Source: Flagellimonas meishanensis
Lineage (GTDB): Bacteria > Bacteroidota > Bacteroidia > Flavobacteriales > Flavobacteriaceae
Direction: 5' to 3'
DNA length: 64,000 bases
Assembly: GCF_019880545.1 (NCBI RefSeq)
Contig: NZ_JAINVW010000001.1
Span: 1 to 64,000, forward strand
The notes beneath the pieces are model-generated. The model had not been told where the DNA came from, did not search any database, and worked only from the letters and a program-made list of their open reading frames with translations. Each line of letters starts with the position of its first letter. Position 1 is the stretch's first letter. Both the position numbers and the translations under genes were made by a program. This document shows positions 22,749 through 26,922 of the stretch, one piece after another.

Positions 22749-22772
22749 ATGCGTTTGTTGATTTTTAAATGA
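22749..22772 (+). promoter_or_regulatory. seven-codon upstream ORF overlapping the symporter start
   Basis: An ATG at 22749, about seven bases after the AG-rich run AAAAAGGAGGG, opens a reading frame encoding MRLLIFK. Its TGA (22770-22772) overlaps the ATG of the symporter gene (22769) as ATGA. A purine-rich ribosome site this strong is unusual in Bacteroidota. The layout suggests translational coupling between a leader peptide and the symporter. If the symporter instead starts at ATG 22802, the uORF would simply lie upstream. Confidence 0.4.
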
Positions 22773-24232
22773 TCGGCAAAACCCTTAGCTTAGAATTCGA
22801 TATGGACGTAAGCAAACAATTGGGCCTTGTTCTAGGCCCCATCGCTTTTCTGATTCTGGTCAACCTGCCGATAGAACTCGTTTCGGAAAAAGGAGATGCC
22901 GTTATTTCGGTCGCCGTTTGGATGCTCATCTGGTGGATCACAGAGGCGGTATCCATCTCCGTGACGGCCTTACTGCCCCTTTTGTTGCTGCCACTACTGA
23001 AAATTTTGCCCATTGCCGAAGTTGGCGCGAACTATGGAAGCCCGATTATCTTCTTGTTTTTTGGTGGGTTTGTCATGGCCCTCGCCTTGGAAAAAGTAAA
23101 CCTGCACCGAAGGATTGCTTTGAACATAATACGGTTGACAGGCACCACTCCGAACAAGGTCGTACTTGGGTTTATGATTGCCACAGCATCCTTGAGCATG
23201 TGGATCAGCAATACGGCAAGTACTGTGGTGATGCTCCCCATTGCCCTTTCGGTAATCAATCTGCTTATCGATGATGAGGATGGTTTTACCAAGAATGACC
23301 AAAACTTTGCGCTCAGTGTCATGCTGGGCATTGCTTTTTCTGCCAATGCAGGAGGCATTGCCACAGTGATAGGAACCCCCCCGAACTCCGTTTTGATAGG
23401 CCTTCTGGAAAACGAGTACAATACAGAAATCTCATTTTTGAGATGGATGACCATAGGTCTGCCATTTTCCATAGTCATGATCGGCATGTGCTACGTTGTA
23501 TTGGTAAAATGGATGTATCCAAATCGGGGACTGACCTTCAATGCCTCAAAAGAAGTCATCCATGCCGAATTGGAAAAACTTGGGCCTACCTCGGGTAAGG
23601 AAAAGATGGTACTTACCATTTTCGTAATCACTGTATTCCTTTGGATTTTCAGGACACTGATCAATGCGCTTTTCCCGGCTTTGGGGCTAACCGATACGAT
23701 GATAAGTATGTTTGCGGCCATTGCCCTGTTCTCGATACCCTACAACATCAAAAAAGGAGATTTCATTGTAGAATGGAGAGATACTTCCAGACTGGCCTGG
23801 GGGATACTGATACTGTTTGGTGGGGGATTGGCACTGGCACAAGGTATGAGTTCCAGTGGCATAGTGGACATGGTGGCCAATGCCATCGCCCAGAGTGAAA
23901 TAAGTATCCTAGTTACCGCGACACTGCTCATTGGCTTAATGCTTTTTATGACGGAACTGATGAGCAACGTGGCCTTGATTGCTGTTCTTGCCCCCGTGGT
24001 GGCGGGTATTGCCCTTGGATTGGGGATTCCAATTCTTTATTTGCTCATTCCCGTTACCATTGCAAGTAGCTGTGCGTTTATGTTGCCCATGGCCACGCCA
24101 CCCAATGCCATTGTCTTTGCCAGCGGCTATATCAAAATAGCGCAAATGGCCAAAGTCGGTATCATTTTAAACCTCATTGCCGTGGGGCTGCTTATTTTGG
24201 CATTCCAATTTATTATACCGCTGTTGTTCTAA
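22769..24232 (+). CDS. SLC13/DASS-family sodium-coupled anion symporter
   Basis: The 487-residue inner-membrane transporter has about a dozen hydrophobic segments. Diagnostic motifs are WWITEAVSISVTALLPLLLL near the N-terminus and two clamshell loops, SNTASTVVMLPIALSV and the later TELMSNVALIAVLAPV. PMATPPNAIVFASGYI matches the family signature that gave DASS transporters their name. Substrates are usually dicarboxylates, citrate or sulfate; the sequence does not settle which. An alternative ATG lies 11 codons in (22802). It is followed by a hairpin shared with the converging repeat-protein gene. Confidence 0.88.
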   Translation: MIGKTLSLEFDMDVSKQLGLVLGPIAFLILVNLPIELVSEKGDAVISVAVWMLIWWITEAVSISVTALLPLLLLPLLKILPIAEVGANYGSPIIFLFFGGFVMALALEKVNLHRRIALNIIRLTGTTPNKVVLGFMIATASLSMWISNTASTVVMLPIALSVINLLIDDEDGFTKNDQNFALSVMLGIAFSANAGGIATVIGTPPNSVLIGLLENEYNTEISFLRWMTIGLPFSIVMIGMCYVVLVKWMYPNRGLTFNASKEVIHAELEKLGPTSGKEKMVLTIFVITVFLWIFRTLINALFPALGLTDTMISMFAAIALFSIPYNIKKGDFIVEWRDTSRLAWGILILFGGGLALAQGMSSSGIVDMVANAIAQSEISILVTATLLIGLMLFMTELMSNVALIAVLAPVVAGIALGLGIPILYLLIPVTIASSCAFMLPMATPPNAIVFASGYIKIAQMAKVGIILNLIAVGLLILAFQFIIPLLF

Positions 24233-24238
24233 AAATAA

Positions 24239-24264
24239 ATGGCCCTTCCGGTTGGAAGGGCCAT
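24239..24264. terminator. bidirectional terminator between convergent genes
   Basis: ATGGCCCTTCC (24239-24249) and GGAAGGGCCAT (24254-24264) form a perfect 11-bp stem around a four-base loop. On the minus strand a T-rich tail (complement of AAAAATAAAT) follows, so it ends the gene at 24314. It also lies seven bases after the symporter stop codon. Confidence 0.75.
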
Positions 24265-24270
24265 TGATAA

Positions 24271-24288
24271 ACTAACTAACTCAAAAAA
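24271..24288 (-). repeat. conserved 3' element, copy 1
   Basis: The 18-base string ACTAACTAACTCAAAAAA occurs here and again, unchanged, at 24918-24935. Each copy lies between the stop codon of an acidic repeat-protein gene and that gene's terminator hairpin. Confidence 0.7.
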
Positions 24289-24313
24289 AAGTAAGAAACT
24301 AACTTAACTCAAC

Positions 24314-24616
24314 TTATTCTGCGTAGGGATTAAAATCCTTCGGAAGGAATTCCTTGGTTTCAAACCCCAGCTCTATCTCATCGCAAAGATCCATAAAGTT
24401 TATTGCCGATAGTGAAAACTGTCCTTGATATGGATCAAAGTTTTCCGGTAGATATTTGGAGGTATCAAATCCCAGTTCCAAGCTGTGGTCCTCCTCAATA
24501 AACTCGATGCTCTGTACATCCAGATCCTGTGCTGTTTTGCTAATATCGTTTGCATGGGCAGTAACTCCGACAAGGGCGGTGAAAACTGCTGTTAGTGCAT
24601 AATTTCTGTAGGTCAT
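24314..24616 (-). CDS. small secreted acidic protein with two YLPxxF-PY repeats
   Basis: This 100-residue protein has a signal peptide (1-22, ending AHA). The mature part holds two copies of a roughly 35-residue repeat. Copy one includes IEFIEEDHSLELGFDTSKYL and ENFDPY; copy two includes INFMDLCDEIELGFETKEFL and KDFNPY. Each repeat is a short hydrophobic-acidic strand, Glu/Leu-Gly-Phe, then Tyr/Phe-Leu-Pro and Phe-Asp-Pro-Tyr. It is a short paralogue of the 24965 protein on the same strand 348 bases away. I know no characterised family. Acidity and export suggest cation or surface binding, which is an inference. Confidence 0.75.
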   Translation of the reverse strand: MTYRNYALTAVFTALVGVTAHANDISKTAQDLDVQSIEFIEEDHSLELGFDTSKYLPENFDPYQGQFSLSAINFMDLCDEIELGFETKEFLPKDFNPYAE

Positions 24617-24641
24617 AACGGTCGTTTTTTAATTGTTTATA

Positions 24642-24649
24642 CAAATGTA
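24642..24649 (-). promoter_or_regulatory. -7 box for the 24314 repeat-protein gene
   Basis: On the minus strand TACATTTG fits TAnnTTTG. It ends 25 bases before the ATG at 24616. No -33 TTTG sits at the standard distance; the nearest TTG is about 25 bases upstream. Confidence 0.4.
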
Positions 24650-24888
24650 CAACCAGAAAATGCTAAGATTATTACAATTAGATTTTTGTTAACGTTCTGT
24701 AGGAAATTACTCAAAAATCAAGTTTGTAATCCTTTGTGCAAAACATTGAAAAGGCAATGATCCCAGATGACAAATTTTACTGGATTATCAATTTTCAAAT
24801 TCCTTTTTTACCAAGTACACTTGGTCGATTTTAGTGTTATTTTTTTGTTAACGAAGCTATTGCAAAGACCAGAAAATGTGTGAAACTA

Positions 24889-24917
24889 AAAAGACCCTCC
24901 TTTGGAGGGCCTTTTCG
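24889..24917 (-). terminator. terminator of the 24965 repeat-protein gene
   Basis: On the minus strand GGCCCTCC, AAA, GGAGGGTC is followed by TTTTTAG. It lies directly after the 18-base 3' element, the same order seen behind the paralogue at 24314. Confidence 0.75.
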
Positions 24918-24935
24918 ACTAACTAACTCAAAAAA
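24918..24935 (-). repeat. conserved 3' element, copy 2
   Basis: This string is identical to 24271-24288 (ACTAACTAACTCAAAAAA on the plus strand) and lies between the stop codon at 24965 and the terminator hairpin. The match outside coding sequence supports duplication of the gene together with its 3' end. Confidence 0.7.
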
Positions 24936-24964
24936 TTTGTAAAATGAAAACTAATGCATCCTAC

Positions 24965-25699
24965 TTAGTTTGACTCCATATAGGGGTCAAAATTTTCTGG
25001 GAGATACGCACTGGCATCAAAACCCAAATCTATTTCTTCATCCTCCATATAGTTGAAGGAAGCTACATCCAATACGCTGGTATACGGATCAAAACCTTTT
25101 GGCAGGTAATAGCTGCTATCAAGACCCATCTCCAATTCCACATCTTCCTCTATATAAGGAATGGCACTTAGGTCCACGTATACCTCATAGGGTGAAAACC
25201 CTTCTGGAAGATAGTCCTTGGTATTGAAACCCAGTTCCAAATCCTCTTCCTCCATAAAGTTGATGGCACTTACTTCCACAATCTGCGTATGGGCATCAAA
25301 GTTTTCCGGAAGGTAATCCCCACTATTGAACCCAAGGTCCAGTTCAACTTCATTTTCAAGGTATATGATGGAATTCAAATCAAAATAGGTGGTATAGGGA
25401 TTAAAGCCCTCGGGCAAGTAATCGGAAGTGTCAAAACCAAGGTTTATTTCCGAATCTTCCTCTATAAACACTATTTCATCCAAACTCAGCTCATATTCTC
25501 CTTCTTTTACCTCATGGCAAAGATTTGAATTTTGCTCTCCAGCCTCAGCATTGATGTACAATGTTGTGCTGCTGTTCTCAAACCTGACAGCGGATTCCAT
25601 ATCGTCTTGTAAAATGGGTGCCGCCGCATTTTGTTGGTCATTGGCTACGGCGGGACTACTTAATAGTACACATCCGTAAATCAGTAATAACTTGTTCAT
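24965..25699 (-). CDS. secreted acidic protein with five tandem YLPxxF repeats
   Basis: The 244-residue protein has a signal peptide (1-19, ending AVA) and a short unique region, then five tandem repeats of 34-35 residues from about 71 to the end. Tyr-Leu-Pro falls at 94-96, 129-131, 163-165, 198-200 and 232-234, which shows the period directly. Each unit carries an acidic strand (for example IVFIEEDSEINLGF), Gly-Phe-Asp/Asn, Tyr-Leu-Pro-Glu and Phe-Asp-Pro-Tyr. The mature chain is strongly acidic with few Lys or Arg. I recognise no described domain. Its short paralogue is next door. A calcium- or surface-binding solenoid is possible but unproven. Confidence 0.78.
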   Translation of the reverse strand: MNKLLLIYGCVLLSSPAVANDQQNAAAPILQDDMESAVRFENSSTTLYINAEAGEQNSNLCHEVKEGEYELSLDEIVFIEEDSEINLGFDTSDYLPEGFNPYTTYFDLNSIIYLENEVELDLGFNSGDYLPENFDAHTQIVEVSAINFMEEEDLELGFNTKDYLPEGFSPYEVYVDLSAIPYIEEDVELEMGLDSSYYLPKGFDPYTSVLDVASFNYMEDEEIDLGFDASAYLPENFDPYMESN

Positions 25700-26178
25700 T
25701 TTTTGATTGAATTTTTGATTGATGATATATGCTTATAAGACGGTGGAAAAACACAATTGTTACACCTTTTTGGTTTTTTTTAGGAAAAGTATATCGTCCC
25801 TGAGACCAGCAATAGATGGGGTTTTCGTTGGAAGTGTCAGTAAAACGCAGGACTCCCAAAGGTTGATTCCCCTGTGGAAAAAAAGGTGCCTTAATAATTA
25901 TTTAACAGTTGATTTTGTTCCTTTTGGGCTTTCTTCATGGTCCCAAATCCCGATCTAAGATCAAAAAAAGGGCCTAAAAATTCTTAAAAACCACTTTTGG
26001 CCCAACCCATATGCCATAGCATTCCGCCCCCACTCGATTCATTTTGGCGCCAAACCATGCTTTTGGTCGATTATACCACGCCTTTTATCTGACACACATC
26101 TAAAAAGTGTCCTTACGCAACATATCGTGTGTATTGAAAAACGGTTTGCCTAATTTAGTAATACCAAATCTCAATATC
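25700..26178. other. intergenic region between divergent genes
   Basis: No convincing gene is present. The short open frames here lack usual codon patterns. There is a GGGCC/GGCCC inverted pair near 25971-26005, AT-rich promoter-like stretches on both sides, and no clear TAnnTTTG box. Confidence 0.4.
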
Positions 26179-26370
26179 ATGACCTATAAAATCAAAAGCC
26201 TTATCTACTTTTCGTGTTTTTTGACTGCCAGCTTCGCATACTATATTATTGAAAAGCACGACGAATTCCAAAATCAAATGCAGTCCAAAACCTATGTGGA
26301 GGCGGAATTCAAGGATATGGAAATCCCTTTGGAAGAGGAGGCTACCGATTTGGTCTTGGAACGCAAATAG
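26179..26370 (+). CDS. 63-residue single-pass membrane protein
   Basis: The start at 26179 is preferred to an in-frame codon 24 triplets upstream because a hydrophobic segment (LIYFSCFLTASFAYYII, about 7-23) then lies at the N-terminus. It is followed by a short acidic tail (EAEFKDMEIPLEEEATDL). No family is recognised. It lies about 100 bases before a Spy-like gene on the same strand and may be cotranscribed. A small membrane-linked stress or adaptor role is only a guess. Confidence 0.5.
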   Translation: MTYKIKSLIYFSCFLTASFAYYIIEKHDEFQNQMQSKTYVEAEFKDMEIPLEEEATDLVLERK

Positions 26371-26475: not shown

Positions 26476-26922
26476 ATGAAACGATTGGCAGTATTGCTGG
26501 TTCTTTTGACCACTTTGGGAGCCCTGGGTCAAAGGAATGAAGGGCACCGTATGGGAAAAGGACCTTCAAGGGACATGACCCCGGAACAGATGGCAACCTT
26601 GCAGACCAAAAGATTGATCTTGGCCCTGGACCTTACCCAGACCCAACAAGATCAGGTCATGGAGTTAAATTTGGAAGAAGCCGAACATCGTAAGGCGCAT
26701 TGGGAAGAGATGAAGGCAAAAAAAGAAAGCGGTGCGTGGAAAAACCCCACACCCGAACAGCGGTTTGAAATGGAAAATGCCCGTTTGGACCGTCAGATTG
26801 TACATCAACAAAGGATGAAACAGGTGCTTACTGAAGATCAGTATAATACCTGGAAAAAAATGAGGCTACATAAATCCGTACACGGTAAAAAGAAAATGCA
26901 GGAGAGCGAAAGAAGAGGATAG
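26476..26922 (+). CDS. Spy/CpxP-like periplasmic helical protein
   Basis: The 148-residue exported protein has a signal peptide (ending LGALGQ, about 19). DMTPEQMATLQTKRLILALD and LTQTQQDQVMEL follow, matching the LTxxQ pattern of Spy/CpxP proteins, with a second near-copy at the end (QRMKQVLTEDQYNTWKKM). These proteins are small helical dimers that bind unfolded proteins or metals and often accompany envelope-stress sensors. The C-terminus is strongly basic. A solid terminator follows. Confidence 0.7.
   Translation: MKRLAVLLVLLTTLGALGQRNEGHRMGKGPSRDMTPEQMATLQTKRLILALDLTQTQQDQVMELNLEEAEHRKAHWEEMKAKKESGAWKNPTPEQRFEMENARLDRQIVHQQRMKQVLTEDQYNTWKKMRLHKSVHGKKKMQESERRG

What the first reader, a model, noticed from the sequence alone, without database searches (positions are those of the whole stretch)
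24314..25699. Paralogous secreted acidic proteins built from 34-35-residue YLPxxF-(D/N)PY repeats
Two adjacent genes encode exported, strongly acidic proteins made of two and five tandem copies of one unit: an acidic hydrophobic strand, Leu-Gly-Phe-Asp, Tyr-Leu-Pro-Glu, Phe-Asp-Pro-Tyr. In the longer protein Tyr-Leu-Pro falls at residues 94, 129, 163, 198 and 232. I know of no described domain with this pattern. Neighbouring copies of different repeat number suggest expansion by recombination. The regular acid residues suggest metal binding or an adhesive solenoid, which is an inference.
Basis: partly seen in the sequence, partly recalled or inferred. Interest (0 to 1): 0.8.

Follow-up and report, generated by a model that had tools for sequence, protein, structure and literature searches.

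The report
Acidic repeat proteins wired to envelope-stress switches
Two neighbouring genes in a flavobacterium encode exported, very acidic proteins built from one 34-35-residue repeat of an undescribed family, and the switches in front of these genes and their relatives suggest they are made to order when the cell envelope is stressed.

Summary
In detail: genes at 24314-24616 and 24965-25699 (minus strand) encode signal-peptide-bearing acidic proteins of two and five repeats. No Pfam, NCBIfam or PDB family matches. Relatives occur in 105 of 397 Flavobacteriaceae genomes; sampled searches gave only one weak match outside that family. The repeats are old: units are 32-53% identical within the protein, 76-88% to the same-numbered unit of Allomuricauda ochracea.

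The new information is regulatory. The long gene sits behind a conserved ECF-sigma-type promoter (32 of 33 genes), found elsewhere before DUF456, DUF4870 and MacB-type ABC genes. Diverged relatives lie beside a LytS kinase and LytTR regulator (19 of 30 kinase loci); a YpdB-like tandem site stands before the repeat gene (8 of 9 matches in 11 genomes). Best explanation: a stress-induced exported polyanionic repeat protein that buffers cationic or membrane-active agents, or unfolded envelope proteins. Regulation is inferred from sequence; the biochemical role is a proposal. Metal-binding or adhesive solenoid is not supported: structure predictions were low-confidence, mostly coil.

The parts
24965..25699 (-). 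Long gene: 244-aa exported acidic protein, five repeat units (Tyr-Leu-Pro at residues 94, 129, 163, 198, 232)
   Evidence: relatives
24314..24616 (-). Short gene: 100-aa exported acidic paralogue, two repeat units
25734..25764 (-). ECF-type promoter of the long gene, TGTAACA-N15-CGTCTTATA; the exact GTAAC-N17-GTCTTAT form occurs once in the genome
24648..24675 (-). Promoter-like element of the short gene, GTAATAA-N15-GTTGTA, followed by TACATTTG
   Evidence: score 11 of 13; 24 of 38 short or three-unit genes score 11 or more
24880..24922 (-). Stretch holding a hairpin with a T tract after the long gene: probable terminator, so the two genes are probably separate transcription units
   Evidence: -19.4 kcal/mol, z -5.97; not listed by the consensus scan
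24238..24265 (-). Terminator-like hairpin after the short gene
   Evidence: -22.1 kcal/mol, z -6.53
22769..24232 (+). Convergent DASS-family anion symporter, conserved neighbour (48 of 63 loci)
26476..26922 (+). DUF4890 (Spy-like) small exported protein, conserved divergent neighbour (44 of 63 loci)

Best explanation
A family of exported, strongly acidic tandem-repeat proteins, seen only in Flavobacteriaceae so far, that serves as a stand-alone output of cell-envelope signalling. Supported by sequence: export signal; two to five conserved units; own promoter and own terminator-like hairpin for each window gene; an ECF-sigma-type promoter on the main (long) gene; in other lineages a neighbouring LytS/LytTR pair and a tandem LytTR-type site in front of the repeat gene and hardly anywhere else. 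Inferred: the ECF regulon is an envelope-stress regulon, because its other members are MacB-type ABC transporters and DUF456, DUF4870 and VTT membrane proteins; on stress the protein is exported to the periplasm or surface, where its regularly spaced acidic blocks and YLPxxFDPY hydrophobic turns act as a polyanionic buffer that binds cationic, membrane-active agents or unfolded envelope proteins.
For: Promoter TGTAACA-N15-(C/A)GTC 61-100 nt before the start: 32 of 33 main-locus genes score 9 or more of 11, shuffles about 1 of 33 (the motif was first seen by eye in the window, one of the 33). The exception, L057, lies inside an OEP-HlyD-ABC-MacB gene row. Strict pattern: 71 matches in 52 of 149 genomes against 2 for the reversed control; of the 30 of 71 held as loci I read the downstream gene as repeat gene in 6, DUF456 in 5, DUF4870 in 3, ABC ATPase with a MacB-type permease next in 3, VTT in 1, and other genes or no clear ORF in 12 (one DUF456, DUF4870, ABC and VTT example confirmed). 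In the window's genome a one-mismatch site lies 68 nt before an ABC gene that is 79% identical to an exact-site target elsewhere. LytS/LytTR: 19 of 30 loci of one kinase group carry the acidic gene upstream, 12 clear and 7 degenerate, judged by eye. GTCGTTTCAC-N11-GTCGTTTCAC: 9 matches in 8 of 11 genomes, 8 of them before the repeat gene, 5 control matches; the layout matches YpdB, GGCATTTCAT-N11-GGCATTTCAT, a regulator with one direct target (passages of PMC4847170). Acidity: median net charge -0.20 per residue in 86 genes, the window's two included, highest pI 4.46 (first 22 residues taken off as signal).
Against: No expression or protein data. In the window's genome one-mismatch promoter hits are not enriched (12, the exact one included, against 34 control), so its wider regulon is not shown. 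Of 21 loci examined among 26 sigma-family matches there, none carries a full copy of the motif (best 18 of 22, L192), so the sigma factor is unidentified. The window's genome lacks the dedicated kinase (best match E 1.4e-44), so the LytTR evidence concerns relatives; two kinase-linked genomes (G104, G225) gave no site match, and 11 of 30 kinase loci do not show the acidic gene, one of them cut by a contig end. Of 53 other repeat genes only 7 carry the ECF-like pair at 9 or more (shuffles 2.65); the short gene has a different element. Buffering of cationic agents rests on charge and regulation alone; binding was not tested.
Confidence: 0.42

Rival explanations
1. Feedback or accessory signalling protein: the exported repeat protein is sensed by, or restrains, its own signalling system (four-TM LytS kinase, or the anti-sigma of the ECF factor), in the way CpxP is said to do for CpxA (recalled).
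For: In the kinase group the repeat gene is next to the kinase and holds 8 of the 9 site matches in 11 genomes; the one kinase examined has about four hydrophobic stretches in its first 146 residues and no large periplasmic domain (L094), so a partner protein could supply specificity.
Against: 10 of 30 kinase loci lack the acidic gene and one is cut off, several with a lipoprotein in its place; a kinase of this group is next to the repeat gene in only 6 of 63 loci; the E. coli systems with one target sense pyruvate and switch on a transporter, so a single target need not be feedback.
Confidence: 0.22
2. Calcium- or metal-binding, or adhesive, repeat solenoid on the cell surface.
For: Regular acidic residues, export signal, tandem units.
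Against: No RTX motif by reading; no sorting or binding domain found by Pfam or NCBIfam; structure predictions are low-confidence and mostly coil; charge-hydropathy values fall on the disordered side (long 0.227 against a boundary of 0.105, short 0.192 against 0.073).
Confidence: 0.15
3. Inhibitor, chaperone or substrate of the divergently encoded DUF5118/5117/4953 met-zincin protease.
For: The protease is a neighbour in 31 of 63 loci, 23 times immediately divergent (Pfam of one example).
Against: The whole region is syntenic and unrelated genes are conserved more often (symporter in 48 of 63); the protease gene is absent beside the repeat genes in the window and in A. ochracea L033 while the repeat genes stay.
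Confidence: 0.08

Closest known systems
Spy/CpxP periplasmic stress proteins (recalled)
   Same: Small exported proteins made as outputs of envelope-stress signalling; a DUF4890 (Spy-like) gene is a conserved neighbour.
   Different: No Pfam match to them; acidic tandem repeats rather than an all-helical cradle; different regulators.
YpdA/YpdB and BtsS/BtsR LytS/LytTR circuits of E. coli
   Same: LytS-type kinase plus LytTR regulator; two 10-nt direct repeats with an 11-nt spacer (YpdB); one apparent target.
   Different: Target is an exported acidic repeat protein next to the kinase, not a transporter; the signal is unknown; applies to relatives, not to the window genome.
Bacillus sigma-W-type envelope regulons (recalled)
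   Same: ECF-type promoter in front of membrane proteins and ABC transporters.
   Different: Different phylum; sigma factor and signal unidentified; I know of no described regulon that holds the repeat protein.
RTX and other calcium-binding repeat proteins (recalled)
   Same: Acidic, exported, tandem repeats.
   Different: 34-35-residue unit without the glycine-rich nonapeptide; no beta-roll in the (weak) predictions.

Membership tests
Any described protein family (Pfam, NCBIfam, PDB) | Score over a curated cut-off, or significant profile match | tested here: not met
   Window proteins: no Pfam match, two NCBIfam matches far below cut-off. 45 two-unit segments: no Pfam family matched by more than 2 members, best E 0.0025. 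PDB profile: best E 0.47. Six relatives: only L105 passes a cut-off (DUF1684, 29.4 against 25 bits) with no single stretch passing.
ECF-sigma regulon member | Conserved -35/-10 pair with fixed spacing upstream of orthologues | tested here: met
   32 of 33 main-locus genes; 71 against 2 control matches in 149 genomes
ECF-sigma regulon member | Loss of expression without the sigma factor | not testable with these tools
   Sigma factor not identified
YpdB-type LytTR single-target circuit (kinase-linked relatives) | LytS kinase and LytTR regulator encoded together | tested here: met
   His_kinase PF06580 and LytTR PF04397 in L094; kinase and regulator genes follow the repeat gene in L074, L087, L094, L105, L107 (a 65-aa opposite-strand ORF overlaps in L087) and the kinase alone was called in L099
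YpdB-type LytTR single-target circuit (kinase-linked relatives) | Two direct repeats, 11-13 nt spacer, in the target promoter and few other places | tested here: met
   13 of 19 repeat-linked loci score 15 or more of 20 within 1200 nt, shuffles 0.3%; 8 of 9 matches in 11 genomes at the repeat gene, none in G104 and G225
YpdB-type LytTR single-target circuit (window genes themselves) | Dedicated kinase and tandem site | tested here: not met
   Kinase of this group absent from G000; no match in G000 with 11-nt spacer and up to 3 mismatches; 33 main-locus long genes score 10-13 of 20. The window's short gene has one 15-of-20 match with a 10-nt spacer at -273, at the end of the long gene's terminator hairpin, taken as chance.
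Spy/CpxP | Pfam-level sequence relationship | tested here: not met
   No match
RTX calcium-binding proteins | GGxGxDxUx nonapeptides (recalled) | tested here: not met
   No GG in either window protein (read)

The most novel reading that the evidence does not exclude
A previously unnamed class of exported polyanionic repeat proteins that Flavobacteriaceae have placed under at least three different regulatory codes (an ECF promoter, a YpdB-like LytTR site, and a third GCAATAA-N15-GTTATA element), in two of them as almost the only site-bearing gene of the genomes searched: a stand-alone envelope-protection module in which the number of units sets capacity, comparable in role to Spy/CpxP but unrelated to them.
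Probability: 0.3. Interest if true: 0.75.

Novelty: new variant of a known kind. Interest (0 to 1): 0.6.

Why it matters
If right, it gives a function-directed handle on an unannotated protein family found in about a quarter of the Flavobacteriaceae genomes sampled (105 of 397), and shows that some of these bacteria devote a whole signalling system to a single exported acidic protein. The promoter codes found here make the regulators and the inducing stress directly testable, in a phylum whose envelope-stress responses are, to my knowledge, poorly mapped.

Tried and rejected
Recent recombinational expansion: rejected for this genome. Mobile or phage origin: no match in plasmids, phages or viral contigs, and the locus is syntenic across much of the family. 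A third match in the own genome, 930293-930442 (E 0.0026), lies in a PLD/helicase-like reading frame by my reading and was set aside as chance. PDB profile hits were E 0.47 and up, three superantigen-like sequences: chance. DUF1684 in L105: sub-threshold stretches added up. Known RNA element: three Rfam matches, all far below their gathering scores. Structure: two AlphaFold2 jobs gave low confidence, so no fold search was run. Literature searches (listings and starts of abstracts only, apart from passages of PMC4847170 and PMC5552118) showed nothing that describes these proteins; they were few, by keyword, and cover only the open library. Identifying the ECF sigma factor by autoregulation failed. 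The promoter motifs were picked by eye from the same sequences and tested against mononucleotide shuffles, which flatters them; the genome-wide counts with reversed controls are the better test. For the third element that test is weak by count: 14 matches in 13 genomes against 12 control, but 11 of the 14 lie before the repeat gene (positions compared). Those 13 genomes were chosen because their three-unit genes had, mostly, already shown the element.

Full report
WHAT IS THERE. Two minus-strand genes, 24314-24616 (100 aa) and 24965-25699 (244 aa), encode proteins with signal peptides (by reading) and two and five copies of a 34-35-residue unit, consensus about DxxxIxYIExExxxxLGFDTxxYLPxGFDPY. 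Leu-Pro and Phe of YLPxxF are invariant in the 45 two-unit segments aligned; segments were chosen by a YLP-type pattern, so this is partly by construction. The proteins are extremely acidic (net -51 in 224 residues; -15 in 78). In 62 of 86 genes, the window's two included, the protein ends within 8 residues of the last recognised unit.

IT IS A REAL, UNDESCRIBED FAMILY. No family in Pfam, NCBIfam or the PDB matches significantly; of six relatives scanned, only L105 passes a cut-off (DUF1684, no single stretch passing). The long protein finds relatives in 105 of 397 Flavobacteriaceae genomes, 69 of 237 genera. A two-unit profile matched 12 of 296 genomes sampled from the order and 7 of 296 from the phylum; all were in the same family except one weak match (G545, E 8.7e-4). 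Those samples hold many members of the family itself, so absence elsewhere is likely but thinly tested. No match in plasmids, phages or viral contigs. The nearest named relative, of three found, is in Allomuricauda ochracea, 78% identical. Repeat-region dN/dS against it is 0.095.

AGE OF THE REPEATS. Within the window protein, units are 32-53% identical; each is 76-88% identical to the same-numbered unit of A. ochracea. Over 11 five-unit proteins the same-numbered unit is the best match in only 117 of 275 comparisons (55 expected by chance), so positional identity fades across genera; near-identical units in one genus (L009) show some homogenisation.

NEIGHBOURHOOD. I took DNA around 60 places in 51 genomes, plus three named loci and the window (64 loci); 63 carried a gene meeting my two-unit rule (L081 did not). 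Some genomes give two or three loci. The main locus is syntenic: DASS symporter in 48 of 63, DUF4890 (Spy-like) gene in 44, met-zincin protease in 31. In the window and A. ochracea the protease is missing beside it. The long and short genes are separated by a strong hairpin (z -5.97; not listed by the scan) and each has its own upstream element, so they are probably separate units.

PROMOTER OF THE LONG GENE. A pair TGTAACA-N15-(C/A)GTC, continued as TTAT in most, lies 61-100 nt before the start. Among 33 main-locus genes, 32 score 9 or more of 11; shuffles give about 1 of 33. Among 53 other repeat genes, 7 do (shuffles 2.65). This is the form of ECF-sigma promoters (recalled). The exact core occurs once in the window's genome, at this gene. 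Across 149 genomes of the family, the strict form gives 71 matches in 52 genomes against 2 for the reversed pattern. Of the 30 loci held I read: repeat gene 6, DUF456 5, DUF4870 3, ABC ATPase with MacB-type permease 3, VTT 1; the remaining 12 are other genes or no clear ORF. One DUF456, DUF4870, ABC and VTT example was confirmed with Pfam. In the window's genome, one-mismatch hits are not enriched (12 against 34 control), but one lies 68 nt before an ABC gene that is 79% identical to an exact-site target elsewhere. Such a regulon looks like envelope stress; that step is inference. In one relative (L057) the repeat gene lies in a row of OEP, HlyD, ABC and MacB genes and lacks the promoter.

KINASE-LINKED RELATIVES. 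Five loci show repeat gene, LytS kinase (342-345 aa) and LytTR regulator (253-254 aa) in a row; a sixth, L099, shows the kinase (Pfam of L094). Searching 299 genomes with one kinase gave a high-scoring group set off by a drop in score (no tree was built); of its 30 best loci, 19 have the acidic gene upstream (12 clear, 7 degenerate, two of these without YLP), 10 do not, and one is cut by a contig end. Before many of these repeat genes stands GTCGTTTCAC-N11-GTCGTTTCAC: 13 of 19 loci score 15 or more of 20 within 1200 nt, shuffles 0.3%; 5 of 10 kinase loci without the repeat gene also reach 15. In 11 genomes searched with up to 3 mismatches, 8 had a match, 9 matches in all, 8 of them before the repeat gene; the reversed control gave 5; the kinase-linked genomes G104 and G225, and G000, gave none. 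The layout equals that of E. coli YpdB, whose only direct target is yhjX (PMC4847170, passages). The window's genome has neither this kinase nor this site.

THIRD ELEMENT. Short and three-unit genes share GCAATAA-N15-GTTATA: 24 of 38 score 11 or more of 13, shuffles about 2%, main-locus genes 0 of 33. In 13 genomes chosen for their three-unit genes, the strict form gives 14 matches, 11 before the repeat gene; the reversed control gives 12, so the other 3 are no more than chance.

STRUCTURE. AlphaFold2 gave mean pLDDT 29.3 for the long protein (4 rows) and 60.3, pTM 0.18, for a 72-residue two-unit segment of the short one (20 rows), nearly all coil with short turns at YLP. Charge-hydropathy puts both on the disordered side. 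With so few rows this is inconclusive.

HOW IT PROBABLY WORKS. Shown by sequence: export signal, acidity, conserved units, conserved promoters. Inferred: induction by envelope stress, and a polyanionic buffer or holdase role outside the cytoplasm. The main rival is a feedback role on its own signalling system.

Noticed in passing
window 24000-26000; G000 contig 1: The main locus lies about 10-37 kb from a contig end in many assemblies, the window's included (coordinates), as if at a fixed distance from a repeated element such as an rRNA operon; not tested.
   Followed up: no
window 25837-25861 (minus strand): A conserved stretch, about CTTTGGGAGTxCTGCGTTTTACTGA, lies upstream of the ECF promoter in eight aligned relatives; no Rfam match at that place, meaning unknown.
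   Followed up: partly
L128-L131, L135, L137-L139, L142, L144: Kinase-group loci without the acidic gene; several carry a lipoprotein instead (one tested, L130, had no Pfam match), and 5 of 10 have a similar tandem site upstream, as if the output gene had been swapped.
   Followed up: partly
window 26179-26367: Small membrane-anchored ORF (MTYKIKSLIYF...), no Pfam match; similar ORFs form a cluster in 15 of 63 loci (the window's copy was not called by the script and is matched by eye).
   Followed up: partly
L057:4709-13418: In one relative a repeat gene sits in a row of outer-membrane efflux, HlyD, ABC, DUF2807 and MacB genes, with a sigma-54 activator gene divergent upstream.
   Followed up: partly
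L034, L035, L059, L060 and seven other loci: A leucine-rich-repeat exported protein near the repeat genes in 11 of 63 loci, directly after them in 9 (Pfam of L059).
   Followed up: no
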